In this document: positions 30,968 to 45,286 of the stretch, one piece after another
Position numbering within the stretch: the first letter of the stretch is position 1
Layout of the letters: each line of letters opens with the position of its first letter
NCBI GenBank assembly: GCA_021324045.1
Contig: JAJPJV010000048.1
Span: 1-64,000, forward strand
Length of the DNA stretch: 64,000 nucleotides
Direction: 5' to 3'
Origin: Actinomycetota bacterium
GTDB taxonomy: Bacteria; Actinomycetota; Acidimicrobiia; Acidimicrobiales; RAAP-2
The notes under the pieces: generated by a model
Database searches by the model: none
What the model was told of the DNA's origin: nothing
What the model saw: only the letters and a program-made list of their open reading frames with translations
Made by a program: the position numbers and the translations under genes

Positions 30968-32806
30968 GTGAACAGGCACGGAGCACGCAGCGAGAACCCG
31001 ATCGCGAGGCCGCCGACCTCAACCAGCCTGGCGAACCTCGCGACGCGTGGGCTGATCCGCGGTGCCGCCGCTGACGTGGCCGTCGCTCGGGAACGGGCTC
31101 GTCAGCGCAAGCTCCGCGCGCTCGCCGCGACCTTGGTGCCGATCGCCGCATGGCTCCTCGTGCGCGATTTCGTCCTGCATCGAGGAGGGTTCGGCTTCCC
31201 GAGCATCCCGAGCTCGCTCGTGCCCTATCTCCCCGCCATCGCGCTCGTCGTCATCCTCGGCGTGGTCATGCTCGCACCCTTGGTCGGGGCAGGGCGTTCT
31301 CCGCACGTGCTGTACCGACCCGAGGAGATCGACGTCCGGTTCTCCGACGTCCGCGGCGCCGACGTCGTCGTCGAGGAGGTGGAAAAGACCCTCAATCTCT
31401 TCCTCGCGCACCGCGCCTTCGCCGAGACCATGGGCGGAACTCCCCGCCGGGCCATCTTGTTCGAGGGACCGCCGGGCACCGGAAAGACCTACCTGGCGAA
31501 GGCCATGGCTGCCGAGGCGGGCGTGCCCTTCCTGTTCGTCTCCTCGTCGGCGTTCCAATCGATGTTCTACGGCCAGACGAACCGCAAGATCCGCTCGTTC
31601 TTCCGCGCGCTGCGTCACTACGCACGCCGCGAAGGCGGTGCGATCGGGTTCATCGAGGAGATCGACGCGATCGGCGCGGCGCGCAGCACTATGGGCTTCG
31701 GGCACCGTGAGGGCATTGCCGGCGTCGTCAACGAACTGCTCGTGCAGCTGCAGTCCTTCGACGCTCCTCCCGCGACGGCCCGCATCGTCAGCAAGCTCGT
31801 TGACGCGGTCAACATCTGGCTGCCCTCGTCGCGCCAGCTGCGCAGGCCCCGGTCGGTCCCTGCCAACATCTTGGTCATCGGGGCGACGAACCGTGCCGCC
31901 GATCTCGATCCGGCGCTGCTGCGTCCCGGACGCTTCGATCGCTCCATCTACTTCGACCTCCCGACGCGACCAGGGCGACGGGCGATCATCGATTACTACC
32001 TCGCCAAGAAGGCCCACGACGAGGAGCTCGACGACGACGGCAGCCGGGACACCCTCGCGGCGCTCACCGCCGGCTACACGCCGGTCATGATCGAACGGCT
32101 CCTCGACGAGGCCTTGGTCTGGGCACTTCGGCGTGGGTCCGACCGGCTCTGCTGGTCAGATATCACCCACGCCAAGATGACCGCCGAGATCGGGCTCGCG
32201 CAGGGCGCCTCGTACACCGAGGCCGAGCGGCGCATGATCGCCACCCACGAAGCGGGGCATGCGGTCGTGGCGTGGCTCGTCGGCAAGGGCCGGAAGCTCG
32301 AGGTGCTCTCCATCGTCAAGCGCAAGGAAGCACTGGGGCTGCTGGCCCACTCGGAGACCGAGGAGCGCTTCACCAAAACGCGCAGCGAGCTCGAATCTTT
32401 GATCCAGATCGCCATGGGTGGGATGGCCGCCGAGAAGGCGTTCTTCGGTGAAACCTCTTCGGGAGTGGCAGCAGATCTCAGGACCGCCACCGAGACGGCG
32501 TGCCAGATGGTCGGAGCGCTCGGAATGGGGTCGACGCTCATCTCCGCGGCTGCGCCCGAGGCTCCTGGAGCGGGGAATCTCTCGGCACGGGTGCTCGCCG
32601 ACGATGCCGGTCGCGAGGAGGTCGAGCGGCTCCTGCGTCGAGCTGAGGCCGACGCGCTGGCGATGATCGAGGCGAACCGGCCCATCGTCGAAGCGCTGCG
32701 CGACGCCCTTCTCGACCGCGAAGAGCTGATCGGACGCCAGATCCTCGAGGTCATCGGCACCGCCGCCCGTCACGGCGGTCGCGCCCGGATCCCCAGCGCG
32801 AGCTGA
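30968..32806 (+). CDS. Divergent FtsH-like AAA+ metalloprotease
   Basis: A 612-residue protein starting with GTG at 30968. Two hydrophobic segments (about 50-68 and 87-107) enclose only about 18 residues, so FtsH's periplasmic domain is missing. The AAA+ domain has Walker A GPPGTGKT (167-174), Walker B GFIEEID with Glu230 where FtsH has Asp, and the SRH ATNRAADLDPALLRPGRFDR. The pore loop is SMFYG rather than FVG. A 30-residue insert (about 265-300) is unusual. The protease domain has the zinc site HEAGH (427-431) and Asp503. FtsH-type proteases degrade membrane and soluble proteins. The altered Walker B and pore loop suggest a specialised paralogue. Confidence 0.9.
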   Translation: MNRHGARSENPIARPPTSTSLANLATRGLIRGAAADVAVARERARQRKLRALAATLVPIAAWLLVRDFVLHRGGFGFPSIPSSLVPYLPAIALVVILGVVMLAPLVGAGRSPHVLYRPEEIDVRFSDVRGADVVVEEVEKTLNLFLAHRAFAETMGGTPRRAILFEGPPGTGKTYLAKAMAAEAGVPFLFVSSSAFQSMFYGQTNRKIRSFFRALRHYARREGGAIGFIEEIDAIGAARSTMGFGHREGIAGVVNELLVQLQSFDAPPATARIVSKLVDAVNIWLPSSRQLRRPRSVPANILVIGATNRAADLDPALLRPGRFDRSIYFDLPTRPGRRAIIDYYLAKKAHDEELDDDGSRDTLAALTAGYTPVMIERLLDEALVWALRRGSDRLCWSDITHAKMTAEIGLAQGASYTEAERRMIATHEAGHAVVAWLVGKGRKLEVLSIVKRKEALGLLAHSETEERFTKTRSELESLIQIAMGGMAAEKAFFGETSSGVAADLRTATETACQMVGALGMGSTLISAAAPEAPGAGNLSARVLADDAGREEVERLLRRAEADALAMIEANRPIVEALRDALLDREELIGRQILEVIGTAARHGGRARIPSAS

Positions 32807-35483: not shown

Positions 35484-36335
35484 TCAGCCGCCGTGAAGCG
35501 CCTCGGGCGCGAACTGCACGACCTGGTCATCGAGCGCCAACACGACCCGGGGCTGCCGACCGACATGAGACTCGGCGACGAGCGCGACGGCCGTTCCCCA
35601 AGAACTGAACCGGATCACGTGGCGGGCAAAAGGCATCGGCCCCTCGTCGACCCGGACCGCGACGATCCCGTGCGCGGACATCTCCAGTGCCGATCGCTGC
35701 ATGCGTTCCATCGCCGACTCCCGCGCTGCATACAGCGCCTGCGTGTAGTTGACGAGCTCGACGTTTTGCGTCGACTGTCGCAGGACGGTGCCCGCCGTCC
35801 GGCGCGGGGCGTACACGAAGCTCGCGCCGAACGCGAGCCCGACGGGGGCCCAGCCAGAGCCCTGGAGCAAGGCGAAGTCCCGAGCAGAGAGATCGGACAC
35901 GAAGGGCCGTTGCCGGCGAGCAGCTCGACCCACCGGTCGAACTGCCGTGCCGGTGAGCTCCACGTCGACGTGGCGCGGATGGATCTCGATGGCGACGCGA
36001 ACGCCGACGGCACCGTGTCCGCCCACCGATGCGCATTGGTCCTCCATACGCCGGGACGCGCTGGTCATGGCCATGGCGTGGGCCGAGGATGCAGGATCGA
36101 GCGCTCCTTGTCCCCAGGTCCAGATCCCCACGGGAATCGACACCACCGAGGCACCAAAGATGAGGTCGATGGGTTCCCAGCCGATCGAATGGAGCAGGAG
36201 CGCCTCGTCGATCGACAGGTCCGATGTCACCCCACGATCGGTGCCCGACGTTTTCCCCTCCGGCGCTGCAAACGCCCGAGCGACCTCGGCACGAAGGTCT
36301 GCGAACGCCGCACCGGGAATGTCGTCGCCGCTCAC
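35484..36335 (-). CDS. Double-domain YbjQ-like heavy-metal-binding family protein (third of array)
   Basis: A 283-residue protein of two YbjQ-like repeats. Repeat 1 (VTSDLSIDEALLLHSIGWEP, about 37-135) ends in VGVRVAIEI...LTGTAVR. Repeat 2 (FVSDLSARDFALLQGSGWAPVGLAFGASF) ends in IVAVRVDEG...SWGTAVALV. The ARESAMERM helix and the closing GTAV strand match the family. The GTG at 36335 overlaps the previous stop by four bases (GTGA), so translation is coupled. YbjQ-like proteins form beta-rich multimers and their function is unsettled despite the heavy-metal label. No cysteine cluster for metal is visible here, making metal binding doubtful. Confidence 0.8.
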   Translation of the reverse strand: MSGDDIPGAAFADLRAEVARAFAAPEGKTSGTDRGVTSDLSIDEALLLHSIGWEPIDLIFGASVVSIPVGIWTWGQGALDPASSAHAMAMTSASRRMEDQCASVGGHGAVGVRVAIEIHPRHVDVELTGTAVRPVGRAARRQRPFVSDLSARDFALLQGSGWAPVGLAFGASFVYAPRRTAGTVLRQSTQNVELVNYTQALYAARESAMERMQRSALEMSAHGIVAVRVDEGPMPFARHVIRFSSWGTAVALVAESHVGRQPRVVLALDDQVVQFAPEALHGG

Positions 36336-37252
36336 GACAACCGGACCGTGACCACCGGTGCTTCGATCGGGTCGAAGTCCTTGAAACGACGAACCCGGGT
36401 GCCCCGAAGCGTACACTCCACGACTTGATCGCCCTCGCCGAGCTCGCGCACGAACGAGCCCACGAGGGCGCCATGCAGGATGTCGCCACCAAGCCGTTGT
36501 CGAAGGCGCTCCTTGGCGATCTGGCGCGCAGCAATCCGGGCTTCGGTGACCTGATCGACTTCCTGGGCGGCCCCGAGCGAACCGCCACCGGCCCATCCGG
36601 ACGCCCCGATGGCGCCCATCGAGTACCCATACCCCTCCATCAGCGCTCGCGTCATGCAATAGCTCCAGACACGAACGGAACTCAACGTGGCGACGACCGA
36701 AACCGGTGCGAAGCCCGCTTCGATCAGCTTCGCCAGACGCTGGCCTGCCAGGTAGGTGCTCCATGGGTCCGACGCTGCTCCCTGCGCGGCGCCCTCGAGT
36801 TTCACCGCGGTCCCAAGCACGTGGAACTCGGTGACATTTGCCTGGGTCGAGCGCGAGGTGTCCTTCACGCCGATCACCCCGTTCGCCCCGAGTGCCCGAG
36901 CCTCCTCCAACATCCGAGCGAACGCCGAATCGAACCCCGCAGCCCAGGCATCCTCCACCCAGGTCTGCTCGGCGTTCTGGCCCCAGGTCGGGTGTTCGGC
37001 CGAGACGAACCCATGTGGGCAGTACCAGACACGTGAGTACCCCCCGTCTCCAACACCCAGCGGCGACAGGCCCCGCAGGGACTGCGCTCCGCCGTACCAG
37101 CCCCACTGCATCGCGCAGAACCCCTGGACGAGGCCGACCGGGCGAAGCCCCATCTGCAGGCATGCGGCGAAGTCAGGGACCGTGAGCCCCGAGGAGAACG
37201 ACTCGGTGGCCAGCCGGCGCTCCGCCGCTTCAGGAACCGAGGAACCGGTCAA
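36332..37252 (-). CDS. Double-domain YbjQ-like protein with insertion (second of array)
   Basis: A 306-residue protein starting at TTG 37252, which overlaps the stop of the first array gene by four bases (TTGA). Repeat 1 begins FSSGLTVPDFAACLQMGLRPVGLVQG and carries a long insert, compared with its neighbours, that is rich in aromatic residues and includes WYCPHGF and HPTWG. It then returns to ARMLEEARALGANGVIGVKD and VLGTAVKLEG. Repeat 2 is more divergent: STYLAGQRLAKLIEAGFAPVSVVA, a Gly-rich stretch, and a final VECTLRGTRVRRF. This is the least conserved member of the array. The function is unknown. Confidence 0.75.
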   Translation of the reverse strand: MTGSSVPEAAERRLATESFSSGLTVPDFAACLQMGLRPVGLVQGFCAMQWGWYGGAQSLRGLSPLGVGDGGYSRVWYCPHGFVSAEHPTWGQNAEQTWVEDAWAAGFDSAFARMLEEARALGANGVIGVKDTSRSTQANVTEFHVLGTAVKLEGAAQGAASDPWSTYLAGQRLAKLIEAGFAPVSVVATLSSVRVWSYCMTRALMEGYGYSMGAIGASGWAGGGSLGAAQEVDQVTEARIAARQIAKERLRQRLGGDILHGALVGSFVRELGEGDQVVECTLRGTRVRRFKDFDPIEAPVVTVRLS

Positions 37253-38049
37253 TTGTCGAGGGAGATGATTGCCATCGGCTTGGGCAAAGTGACCTCGTCG
37301 CCCCGTTTGGCCACCGCGGTCCCCAACGACAGGAATTCGATCGTGTGGGAACCCCATTGGTGGGACTTCTCCTCGAGGCGAACGCCGACGATGCCCGTCG
37401 CCTCGAGCCTGGTTGCCTCGTCCTGCATCCGGGTCATGGCGAGCTCGCGCGCCTCGTAGAGCGCCTGGGTGAAGTTGGGAAGCTCGACGTTCTGACCCAC
37501 GGTCCCGATCGCCTGTGCGAGTCCTCGATGCGCGATGTGATACACGCAGGTCCCCATCACGAGCCCCTGTGGGACGTAACCCGTTTGCATGATGGTCCAG
37601 AAGTCCTGGCCGGAGAGGTCAGAGGTGAACGGCTTGCCGAGCACGTTGCGATAGGAACCCCCGTCTTCTGCTTTCACCGCTGTGCCCATCGCGACGAACT
37701 CGGCGGCGTCGCTGCCCCATTCGTAGTAATTGACGTCGAGCCGCACGCCGACGACACCGTCGGCGCCAAGGACCTCGGCTTCCTCCTCCATTCGGGTCAT
37801 CGCCAGCTCCCGAGCGTTGTACATCGCCTCGGTCAGCTTCGTGAGCTCCTGACTCTTGCTCCAGCGCCGCGTCTGGACGCCAGTGTGGTGGATCGACGAC
37901 CCCATCACGAAGCCCAGAGGATGGAACCCTGCCTCTTTGACCAGCAGGAATTCGTTCACCGACAGATCGGAGGTGAAGAGCCCCCGCTCGAGCTCCTCGA
38001 GCCGGTGGCCCACGTCCTTGGGCAGGCCTTCAGGGTTTCCACCGCTCAT
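37249..38049 (-). CDS. Double-domain YbjQ-like heavy-metal-binding family protein (first of array)
   Basis: A 266-residue protein with two clear YbjQ-like repeats. Repeat 1 begins FTSDLSVNEFLLVKEAGFHP and ends GADGVVGVRLDVNYY...VAMGTAVKA; repeat 2 begins FTSDLSGQDFWTIMQTGYVP and ends ATGIVGVRLEEKSH...LSLGTAVAK. Both contain the (A)YNARELAMTRM / LYEARELAMTRM helix, showing a recent internal duplication. A GGAGGA ribosome-binding site precedes the ATG. It is the best preserved member of the coupled three-gene array. YbjQ relatives assemble into pentamers, so double-domain proteins could build larger or mixed rings, which is inference. Confidence 0.85.
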   Translation of the reverse strand: MSGGNPEGLPKDVGHRLEELERGLFTSDLSVNEFLLVKEAGFHPLGFVMGSSIHHTGVQTRRWSKSQELTKLTEAMYNARELAMTRMEEEAEVLGADGVVGVRLDVNYYEWGSDAAEFVAMGTAVKAEDGGSYRNVLGKPFTSDLSGQDFWTIMQTGYVPQGLVMGTCVYHIAHRGLAQAIGTVGQNVELPNFTQALYEARELAMTRMQDEATRLEATGIVGVRLEEKSHQWGSHTIEFLSLGTAVAKRGDEVTLPKPMAIISLDN

Positions 38050-38062
38050 GTCGCTCCTCCGC

Positions 38063-38143
38063 TCACCCTGCGCCGCCAGGTCGGCCGCCGCCGATCACCA
38101 TGATCGTTCCCGCACCGCAAACGTTGCACACGACTTGCTGCAC
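38063..38143 (-). CDS. 26-codon micro-ORF with CxxC motif
   Basis: This frame lies between the 144-residue gene and the first YbjQ-like gene, in the same frame as the former after its stop. From the GTG at 38143 the product is 26 residues with a single CNVCG knuckle followed by a Gly-rich tail. The stop is fourteen bases before the ATG of the first YbjQ-like gene and encloses part of its ribosome-binding region, as in a coupling leader. It may be a real half-zinc-finger peptide, a decayed C-terminus of the upstream gene, or chance. Confidence 0.3.
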   Translation of the reverse strand: MQQVVCNVCGAGTIMVIGGGRPGGAG

Positions 38144-38164
38144 GACGAGCTGACGACGCTGCGA

Positions 38165-38599
38165 TCAAGATCTTCCTCCGATCATGATCCGCTCCAACGC
38201 GATGCGAGCGGACTCGCTGGCTTCGGCCTCTGCCTTGAGGGAGCGGAGGAGCCGCTTCAACCACTCCTCGATGGTCAGTTGCTCGCTTCGGATCCGGATC
38301 CCACCTGAAGAATGCCCGACCGTACACCGTACGGTGCCGCCGTCGAGCTCAACCCGGTACTGGTCCCCTCCGAGCTCGATCTGTAGAGAACGGATCTCCT
38401 CGGATCGCCGCAGCAAGCCGCCACGGCGCTCGACGGAGAGACGAGGCCCCAATGTCTCGCCGAGCTGGCGCGCCAGGACCTTCAACATGATCCCGACGTC
38501 GGTACCGCTCGCCTGCAACCCGGCGATCGCCAAGTCCAGATCGAACGCGTCGTCCGCGTCATCTGCCACGAACACCGATTCTACGACCAGAACCCTCAC
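38165..38599 (-). CDS. Hypothetical protein, 144 residues, heading the YbjQ array
   Basis: The gene starts at GTG 38599 and lies 115 bases upstream of the first YbjQ-like gene on the same strand, so it probably heads that transcript. The product is acidic at the N-terminus (FVADDADDAFDLDLAIAGLQ), has a central beta-like region (LQIELGGDQYRVELDGGTVRCTVG) and ends in a helical segment (IEEWLKRLLRSLKAEAEAS). It has no signal peptide, membrane segment or recognised domain. It may be a partner of the YbjQ-like proteins, on gene context only. Confidence 0.65.
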   Translation of the reverse strand: MRVLVVESVFVADDADDAFDLDLAIAGLQASGTDVGIMLKVLARQLGETLGPRLSVERRGGLLRRSEEIRSLQIELGGDQYRVELDGGTVRCTVGHSSGGIRIRSEQLTIEEWLKRLLRSLKAEAEASESARIALERIMIGGRS

Positions 38600-44302: not shown

Positions 44303-45286
44303 TCAGCGACCGATCTCCGCCCACACCACCTTCCCGCCGTCGAGGAATTCTGCGCCCCATCGACTCGCGATCCCAGCAACGATGTCCAGCCCGCGACCGG
44401 AGAACTCCGCTCGCGAAGGACCTGTGGGCGTCGCAGGCCGCGGATCGCTGTCCTGCACCGAGATCCGAATGCTTTCGTCGCCGATCATCACTCGGAGCGT
44501 GAAGGACGAGCGAGCGTGCACCACCGCGTTCGTTGCAAGTTCTGTGACGACGAGAGCTGCGTTGTGCACTGCCTCGACGCCGCCCCAGTCGCCGAGGACC
44601 TCCATCACGAAATGACGAGCCGAACGCGGAGCATGCTCCAATGCCTGGAACGTCCGCTCGAACGTCGCCAACGTGTCGGAGGTGCCCGAAGGTCGCCGCG
44701 GTGCAGCGAACGAGGCTAAGTCATCGGGGACGGGCCCGACGACCTCGGAATGCAGCCTCCGAATCCTGCGAACCCATGAACCGTCTGCCCTCGGATCGAG
44801 GAGCATGGCGGGGTATGAGCAAAGCAACGAGAGCGGCTTCCCTTCGGTCAGCGTGTTCCAGAGCACCTCGAGCTCGATCGCCGCTGCGACGTTGCCGGCT
44901 TCCCAGAGGCAGCCGACCATCCCACCGAAGAGGCTGACCGGCCGCCCTCCGGCGATGGCCGAGCGAACGATCGAACCGATGACGGAATCGAACCGACGAG
45001 GATCGGGGCCTCCGGCGTCCATGAAGCCCCCCAGCGTCTCCTCGGCGTCGAGCACGATCAGGGCGCCGTCGTCCAGGGCTGCCTCGACGTCGTGGCCGGC
45101 TGCTCTGAACGCCTGTTCGAACGCACAGCGATGGGCCTCGCCAGCCACGACAACGGCCAAATGGCATGCCCGGATCGCCGCGACGACGAACGTGCACACC
45201 TGCTCGACGAGCCCCTCTTCACTCTCGTAAAAGGACAAGAGGTGCCGCGCCTGGTGCCTCGCGGCTGCCGGAGGGACCGTTGTCAC
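44303..45286 (-). CDS. MEDS-domain sensor with histidine-kinase-like ATPase (anti-sigma type)
   Basis: A 327-residue protein, GTG start. The N-terminal region (about 12-180) resembles the MEDS sensory domain: HLLSFYESEEGLVEQVCTFV, then AIRACHLAVVVAGEAHR, then LFGGMVGCLWEAGNVAAAIELEVLWNTL. The C-terminal domain is a HATPase of the RsbW/SpoIIAB type: N-box ELATNAVVHA, G1 QDSDPRPA and G2 GRGLDIV. No His-phosphotransfer domain is present. This pairing occurs in actinobacterial regulators that bind sigma factors or antagonists. The input ligand and partner sigma factor are unknown. It is downstream of the MarR gene on the same strand, 86 bases away. Confidence 0.85.
   Translation of the reverse strand: MTTVPPAAARHQARHLLSFYESEEGLVEQVCTFVVAAIRACHLAVVVAGEAHRCAFEQAFRAAGHDVEAALDDGALIVLDAEETLGGFMDAGGPDPRRFDSVIGSIVRSAIAGGRPVSLFGGMVGCLWEAGNVAAAIELEVLWNTLTEGKPLSLLCSYPAMLLDPRADGSWVRRIRRLHSEVVGPVPDDLASFAAPRRPSGTSDTLATFERTFQALEHAPRSARHFVMEVLGDWGGVEAVHNAALVVTELATNAVVHARSSFTLRVMIGDESIRISVQDSDPRPATPTGPSRAEFSGRGLDIVAGIASRWGAEFLDGGKVVWAEIGR

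What the first reader, a model, noticed from the sequence alone, without database searches (positions are those of the whole stretch)
35484..38599. Coupled array of three double-domain YbjQ-like genes
Three consecutive genes, each encoding two YbjQ-like repeats, overlap by four bases at each junction (TTGA at 37249-37252, GTGA at 36332-36335), giving six domains in one translationally coupled unit. YbjQ is usually a single-domain, single-gene protein. The repeats diverge in an ordered way, with an aromatic and Cys/His-containing insert in the middle gene. An unknown 144-residue gene and a CxxC micro-ORF precede the array. This suggests an undescribed multiprotein assembly, perhaps hetero-oligomeric rings. 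The heavy-metal label of the family is weakly supported here.
Basis: partly seen in the sequence, partly recalled or inferred. Interest (0 to 1): 0.78.

Follow-up and report, generated by a model that had tools for sequence, protein, structure and literature searches.

The report
Conserved four-gene YbjQ cassette
Three neighbouring genes, each encoding a fused pair of YbjQ-type domains, form a tightly coupled and conserved unit with a fourth gene of unknown kind, probably making one mixed protein complex whose job is not known.

Summary
A (38049-37249), B (37252-36332) and C (36335-35484) each hold two YbjQ-fold domains and overlap by four bases. All three pass Pfam's YbjQ cut-off; four of six domains do so alone, C1 and B2 rest on weaker evidence. 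The array is not unique: 80 fetched relatives carry D-A-B-C in one order and strand, except where contigs end. The upstream unknown gene D belongs to the unit: among 298 genomes of the order, D occurs in 74, all with an A-type gene, and A without D in one. D has a promoter-like box right at its start and no recognised family or fold. Distant relatives carry two-gene versions, also on Streptomyces plasmids. First and second domains form separate tree groups, so the fusion preceded the gene duplications. The CxxC micro-ORF is rejected: it lies in a spacer found here only in the window. A hetero-oligomeric YbjQ assembly with D as partner is the best explanation, inferred and not shown. A C-x-H-x6-H motif in all 81 B sequences makes metal binding plausible again. 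The papers searched hold no description that I could find.

The parts
38578..38583 (-). -10-like box TAGAAT, 8 bases before the GTG of D; suggests a leaderless operon transcript (inference)
   Evidence: sequence. TANNNT 6-10 bases before the D start in 46 of 70 sequences, window included (background mean 0.17 of 70, max 1); sequences
38165..38569 (-). Gene D, 134 aa, no recognised family; first gene of the unit
   Evidence: D homologue in 78 of 80 loci; co-occurs with A in 74 of 74 genomes of the order draw
38063..38143 (-). CxxC micro-ORF (26 codons) in a window-specific spacer between D and A; probably not a gene
   Evidence: no such spacer in the relatives examined
37249..38049 (-). Gene A, 266 aa, two YbjQ domains; most conserved member
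   Evidence: median pairwise identity 84% over 81 sequences
37666..37980 (-). YbjQ domain A1
37306..37632 (-). YbjQ domain A2
36332..37252 (-). Gene B, 306 aa, two YbjQ-fold domains with a Cys/His insert in the first
36797..37201 (-). YbjQ domain B1 with insert
   Evidence: 1vr4_B Z 7.8, 74 residues, 2.2 A
36992..37021 (-). C78-P-H80-x6-H87 motif of B, candidate metal site
   Evidence: C78, H80 and H87 in 81 of 81, C199 in 80 of 81 B sequences
36383..36763 (-). Degenerate YbjQ-fold domain B2
   Evidence: hhalign to A1 E 9e-7, probability 91%; predicted helix-strand-helix-strand-strand as in B1; groups with second domains on long branches
35484..36335 (-). Gene C, 283 aa, two YbjQ domains
35934..36230 (-). 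YbjQ-like domain C1
   Evidence: hhalign to A1 E 1.7e-18; tree
35580..35906 (-). YbjQ domain C2
37249..37252 (-). TTGA overlap of A stop and B start
   Evidence: 4-base overlap in 9 of 81 (window included), 1-base overlap in 66 of 81 by the script's start rule
36332..36335 (-). GTGA overlap of B stop and C start
   Evidence: 4-base overlap in 74 of 79

Best explanation
D-A-B-C is one transcription unit. It probably starts at a leaderless promoter in front of D and is translated with stop-start coupling, so that the subunits are made together. The three double-domain proteins are paralogues of one ancestral fused YbjQ pair and most likely assemble, with D as partner, into one cytosolic hetero-oligomer built on the YbjQ ring. 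A, slow-evolving and present in every version, is the core. B and C (or the single partner X in two-gene versions) are faster-diverging subunits that give the complex its specificity, and D is an adaptor, cap or assembly factor. The likely task is to bind and hold a small ligand, with a metal ion at the C-x-H-x6-H site of B as the leading guess in three-gene versions. Shown: gene order, overlaps, conservation, co-occurrence, promoter-like box, domain content, purifying selection. Inferred: single transcript, physical complex, ring, roles of the subunits, ligand.
For: Cassette kept in 80 loci apart from genes lost at contig ends (D in 78, B in 80, C in 77 of 80), with no other gene family shared widely nearby. 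Junctions coupled: D/A 73 of 79 and B/C 74 of 79 with 4-base overlap, A/B 9 of 81 with 4-base and 66 of 81 with 1-base overlap. D in 74 and A in 75 of 298 genomes, overlap 74; within 2.6 kb in 60 of 74. D linkage also outside the order (L131-L133), with changed gene order (X-A-D), and next to a broken A homologue on a cyanobacterial plasmid. First and second domains separate with 99/96 support. Solved YbjQ and DUF74 structures are pentamers (PMC2954204, PMC4092069, passages). dN/dS about 0.11-0.30 for the four genes, window against L005. Invariant Cys/His in B.
Against: No complex was modelled or measured. Fused pairs do not divide evenly into a five-domain ring, so the known pentamer cannot be copied directly. 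Two-gene cassettes show that A+B+C is not obligatory. D can sit apart from A: 39 kb away in G080, and in 13 of 74 genomes no listed A match lies on D's contig; in L228, L236 and L242 D stands mid-stretch without any YbjQ gene in 11.5-12.5 kb. The B motif is absent from partner X of L130 and L132, so a metal site cannot be the general function. Lone A-like genes without partners exist. Co-occurrence is not corrected for phylogeny.
Confidence: 0.5

Rival explanations
1. The genes are coupled for balanced dosage, but the products do not form one complex: A, B and C are separate homo-oligomers binding different ligands, and D is a small regulator or a chaperone for A.
For: YbjQ proteins of known structure are homo-oligomers. 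B and C diverge faster than A, as for separate ligands. Lone A-like genes exist, and D can be unlinked from A.
Against: Near-perfect co-occurrence of D and A (74 of 74 D genomes) and stop-start coupling at the three junctions in most loci fit a stoichiometric complex better.
Confidence: 0.25
2. A metal-handling unit proper: B takes up a metal through C-x-H-x6-H and passes it to, or stores it in, the A/C ring, as a resistance or buffering system.
For: C78, H80 and H87 in 81 of 81 and C199 in 80 of 81 B sequences, in a protein with only 30 columns at 98% or more. A keeps H43, H55, C168, H171, H174, H230 and H235 in 81 of 81, though A is conserved overall.
Against: No transporter, metal regulator or other gene shared widely beside the cassette. 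Motif absent from X of L130 and L132. In the passages and listings I saw, the family's heavy-metal label is a prediction (PMC4092069).
Confidence: 0.2
3. A mobile or defence-type module.
For: Patchy distribution (57 of 100 family genomes; 75 of 298 in the order), changing neighbourhoods, plasmid copies in Streptomyces.
Against: No PADLOC match for 8 proteins; no relative in the phage records or by the viral contig scan, though A weakly matches one phage family of unknown function, PHROG 15412, E 1.3e-9. A evolves slowly (84% median identity), unlike arms-race genes.
Confidence: 0.05

Closest known systems
YbjQ / UPF0145 / PF01906 (E. coli YbjQ; PDB 1y2i, 1vr4, 2gtc)
   Same: Domain homology of A, B and C (weak PDB sequence hits of A, E 0.01-0.11); B1 matches 1y2i_A by Foldseek E 8.5e-4 and 1vr4_B at Z 7.8 over 74 residues, 2.2 A
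   Different: E. coli ybjQ encodes one 107-residue domain; here fused pairs in three co-translated genes with an unrelated partner D. The solved structures are homopentamers (passages in PMC2954204, PMC4092069)
'Heavy metal-binding domain-containing' double-domain proteins on Streptomyces plasmids (NZ_CP108424, NZ_CP108443)
   Same: A homologue at 58-60% identity beside a second double-domain gene and a D homologue
   Different: Two double-domain genes instead of three, D last instead of first; annotated by label only
RcsF / DUF1471 and archaeal selenium-binding protein fold relatives
   Same: Small alpha/beta fold: RcsF 2y1b Z 6.6 over 80 residues, 3.9 A, against B; fold kinship stated in PMC4092069 (passages)
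   Different: Fold resemblance only; no membership claimed
PF23025 YbjQ_2 (YbjQ-like domain of C2 domain-containing protein 5)
   Same: Weak matches of A (E 0.08) and B (E 0.03), below its cut-off
   Different: A domain named after a C2 domain protein; that this is eukaryotic and multi-domain is recalled, not tested

Membership tests
PF01906 YbjQ_1 | Protein score above Pfam's gathering cut-off (23 bits) | tested here: met
   A 87.7, B 33.6, C 51.6 bits
PF01906 YbjQ_1 | Each of the six domains alone above the cut-off | tested here: not met
   4 of 6 (A1, A2, B1, C2) in a six-frame search; C1 and B2 supported by hhalign and tree, B2 also by the fold prediction
YbjQ/UPF0145 | Single ~100-residue domain protein | tested here: not met
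   All three are fused pairs of 266-306 aa; E. coli YbjQ is 107 aa
YbjQ/UPF0145 | YbjQ fold | tested here: met
   Model of B (pLDDT 86.5, pTM 0.82): Foldseek's top five are 1y2i and 1vr4 chains, E 8.5e-4 to 7.2e-3, probability 1.00; Z 7.8 to 6.5, under the tool's level of 8. First half only; A and C were not modelled
YbjQ/UPF0145 | Homopentameric ring | not testable with these tools
   No multimer prediction on hand
YbjQ 'heavy-metal-binding' label | Binds metal | not testable with these tools
   Only a conserved C-x-H-x6-H in B
Ubiquitin-like or Pup-like modifier (D, because of its C-terminal GG) | C-terminal GG conserved independently of the DNA context | tested here: not met
   The GG is encoded by the GGAGG in front of A; D of L130, L131, L132 and L145, which does not overlap a following A, lacks it. 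L133 has GG one residue before its end
Known anti-phage defence (PADLOC) | Match to a defence profile | tested here: not met
   0 of 8 proteins at E 0.01

The most novel reading that the evidence does not exclude
A new kind of protein assembly: a two-tier or six-domain hetero-oligomeric ring made from fused, specialised YbjQ domains (A core, B metal-binding, C), assembled or capped by D, a protein with no recognised fold, and made by one leaderless, stop-start-coupled operon that occurs across Actinomycetota and possibly reached cyanobacteria.
Probability: 0.3. Interest if true: 0.7.

Novelty: new variant of a known kind. Interest (0 to 1): 0.55.

Why it matters
YbjQ is a widespread family with solved structures and no established function that I found. 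Here it appears as a specialised, multi-subunit, constrained unit with a dedicated partner, which gives a handle that the single-gene versions lack: co-purify A with D and the partners, find the bound ligand, delete the cassette. If a hetero-ring forms, it also shows how a homopentamer family changes its symmetry after domain fusion.

Tried and rejected
CxxC micro-ORF as a zinc-ribbon partner: rejected, seen only in the window's own D-A spacer. D as ubiquitin-like or Pup-like because it ends in IGG: rejected, the GG is the ribosome-binding GGAGG of A read in frame. D by Pfam, NCBIfam, PHROGs, PADLOC and PDB sequences: nothing convincing (Pfam DUF7433 in 10 of 55 members, best E 3.1e-4, DUF5073 in 3, best 2.7e-4; FliE chain at E 0.022). 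D fold searches: no PDB or BFVD match at E 0.001; best second-look Z 6.6 (4n9f_b, 88 residues, 3.6 A), under the level the tool calls informative; a few phage proteins of unknown function share parts of the shape at high Foldseek probability but E above 0.02. Neighbours beyond the cassette in 80 loci: besides the YbjQ and D clusters, five clusters of 17, 10, 8, 7 and 6 loci, four of them wholly on the opposite strand, not shared widely (some look like mis-called frames over the array). Neighbours of lone A-like genes in 15 stretches: one transporter-like cluster in 3, nothing else in 3 or more. Phage records and viral contigs: no relative. RNA families at the locus: none. The statement in PMC7084401 (one passage seen) that YbjQ replaces ThiE looks to me like a confusion with YjbQ (recall, not tested), so thiamin synthesis was not pursued. 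PMC6414554: only a table passage with YbjQ was seen.

Limits. Of 165 relatives only the best 80 were kept. In one search the C hits of L029, L062 and L067 were dropped because they fell on A. The promoter count uses 70 of 79 D genes, those with a start codon found and 60 bases upstream; start codons were picked by rule. Gene calls in scripts are a simple codon-position heuristic; it found D in only 47 of 80 loci, so rare neighbours may be missed. The D search scored at most 14 candidates per genome. One search used the A positions that I copied, whose list is cut. Lone A-like genes also count as A. Literature: (30 of 58 papers listed), open-licence papers only.
Full report
What is there. On the minus strand lie D (38569-38165, 134 aa by my start), A (38049-37249, 266 aa), B (37252-36332, 306 aa) and C (36335-35484, 283 aa). 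A/B share TTGA and B/C share GTGA. Pfam gives PF01906 at 87.7, 33.6 and 51.6 bits for A, B and C against a cut-off of 23. In the whole genome the family has four matches, all inside this array (A1, A2, B1, C2), so no separate YbjQ gene was found in this assembly (96% complete). C1 and B2 fall below the cut-off singly. Profile comparison links C1 to A1 (E 1.7e-18) and B2 to A1 (probability 91%, E 9e-7), but not B2 to B1 (probability 0.6%). The AlphaFold2 model of B (60 sequences, pLDDT 86.5, pTM 0.82) shows the same order of helices and strands in both halves. The first half matches 1y2i and 1vr4 by Foldseek (E 8.5e-4 and 2.3e-3) and 1vr4, 3qkb, RcsF and 1y2i in the second look (Z 7.8 to 6.5, under the tool's level of 8); no row isolates the second half.

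Is it conserved? Of 165 relatives of A in genome contigs the best 80 were fetched, at 80-89% identity, titled mostly as Acidimicrobiaceae, Acidimicrobiales or other Actinomycetota, a few MAGs bearing Acidobacteria labels. In these 80, B was found in 80, D in 78 and C in 77, in the same order and strand. The two without D have A within about 130 bases of the locus start, and the three without C end within B or within 600 bases after it. In the family 57 of 100 genomes (17 of 21 genera) hold A; in the phylum draw 10 of 296. Median pairwise identity is 84% for A but 55%, 55% and 53% for B, C and D. Counting substitutions between window and L005 gives dN/dS of about 0.11 for A, 0.30 for B, 0.27 for C and 0.30 for D: purifying selection, no decay.

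D belongs to the unit. In two searches over 298 genomes of the order, D is found in 74 and A in 75; all 74 D genomes have A, and only G419 (88% complete) has A without D (Fisher p 4e-70, not corrected for phylogeny). D and A lie within 2.6 kb in 60 of 74 genomes; in G080 they are 39 kb apart, and in 13 no listed A match lies on D's contig. Some of these separations are real: in L228, L236 and L242 D stands in the middle of 11.5-12.5 kb without any YbjQ gene. In the phylum draw D occurs in 8 of 292, all with A. Two A genomes there, G096 and G150 (A at 49%), are not among the eight; whether both were in the 292 drawn is not shown. D has no convincing family match. Its model (55 sequences, pLDDT 82.6, pTM 0.76) is two helices, five strands, two helices, with no PDB or viral match at E 0.001 and no second-look Z above 6.6. 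Its most conserved stretch is S-G-G-I-R-I-R.

How it is expressed. Upstream of D, 46 of 70 sequences have TANNNT ending 6-10 bases before the start codon, most often TAAGGT at 8 (26 of 46); the same window slid upstream gives 0.17 of 70 on average and at most 1. The window has TAGAAT at 38583-38578. A -10 box that close puts the transcript start at or next to the start codon, so the mRNA is probably leaderless and D its first gene (inference). D and A overlap by ATGA, GTGA or TTGA in 73 of 79, B and C by ATGA or GTGA in 74 of 79; A and B overlap by 4 bases in 9 of 81 and by 1 base in 66 of 81. The window is the exception at D/A, with a 115-base spacer that holds the CxxC micro-ORF. In the same spacer a 40-codon frame starts in the TTGA at D's stop and ends in the ATGA at A's start (read), which could keep the coupling. 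The conserved I-G-G at D's end is the ribosome-binding GGAGG for A read in frame.

Variants. Distant loci carry a shorter form, D with one divergent double-domain gene X and A, in the order D-X-A (L130-L133) or X-A-D (for example L219, L231, L256). A census of 40 further stretches from the order shows two-gene and three-gene forms, with D at either end, and a few stretches with D or A alone. Two Streptomyces plasmids have X-A-D, with A at 58-60% identity and D at E 3e-17 and 1e-13. A cyanobacterial plasmid has a D fragment (E 4e-9) directly before a frameshifted A homologue. A tree of 55 domains puts the first domains and E. coli YbjQ on one side and the second domains on the other (99/96), so one fused pair came first and was then duplicated. 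The E. coli branch is very long and B2 and X2 join on long branches, so finer order and the place of E. coli YbjQ are unsure.

Function. Solved YbjQ/DUF74 structures are pentamers (passages of PMC2954204 and PMC4092069). A fused pair cannot tile a five-domain ring evenly, so the fusion implies either two stacked rings with one domain per chain in each, or another symmetry. Six domains from A+B+C would suit a hexamer, but two-gene cassettes have four, so this cannot be universal. In B, C78, H80 and H87 are present in 81 of 81 and C199 in 80 of 81, in a protein with only 30 columns at 98% or more. That is a plausible metal site, absent from X of L130 and L132. No transporter, regulator or enzyme is shared widely beside the cassette. 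I therefore favour a self-contained ligand- or metal-holding hetero-oligomer with D as adaptor or assembly factor.

Novelty. Seven searches of open-licence papers listed no paper whose title or abstract start points to tandem double-domain YbjQ genes or to D; only 30 of 58 papers were listed, of the listed papers I read passages of four, and subscription papers were not searchable. The domain family is known; the coupled multi-gene unit with D appears undescribed.

Noticed in passing
window 38046-38168 (-): A 40-codon frame overlaps D's stop by TTGA and A's start by ATGA, bridging the window-specific spacer; a better coupling candidate than the CxxC frame.
   Followed up: partly
L157 2094-3244 (E. 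coli K-12): ybjQ overlaps amiD (N-acetylmuramoyl-L-alanine amidase) by four bases, a possible lead on single-gene YbjQ function.
   Followed up: no
L134, L139, L258-L261, L264-L268: A separate lone A-like gene (about 54-58% identity to A) occurs outside the cassette in several genomes, without D or partners called beside it and without widely shared neighbours.
   Followed up: partly
L269 5265-6447: An A-like gene (60% identity) with only a weak D match (E 1.6e-7) beside it and no X, B or C called: a possible minimal pair.
   Followed up: no
L137, L138: Second, diverged three-gene YbjQ cassettes in G340 and G366, with no D detected on these contig pieces of 7.0 and 7.7 kb.
   Followed up: partly
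L130, L145: Partner X of L130 and of the Streptomyces plasmid share an R-H-D-D-W-x-T motif in the second domain in place of the B-type Cys/His motif.
   Followed up: no
window 44303-45286 (-): MEDS sensory domain plus histidine-kinase-like ATPase domain, probably a regulator.
   Followed up: no
window 30968-32806 (+): AAA plus peptidase M41 (FtsH-type) protein.
   Followed up: no
paper PMC7084401: States that YbjQ replaces ThiE; by my recall that enzyme is YjbQ, so the names may have been swapped.
   Followed up: no
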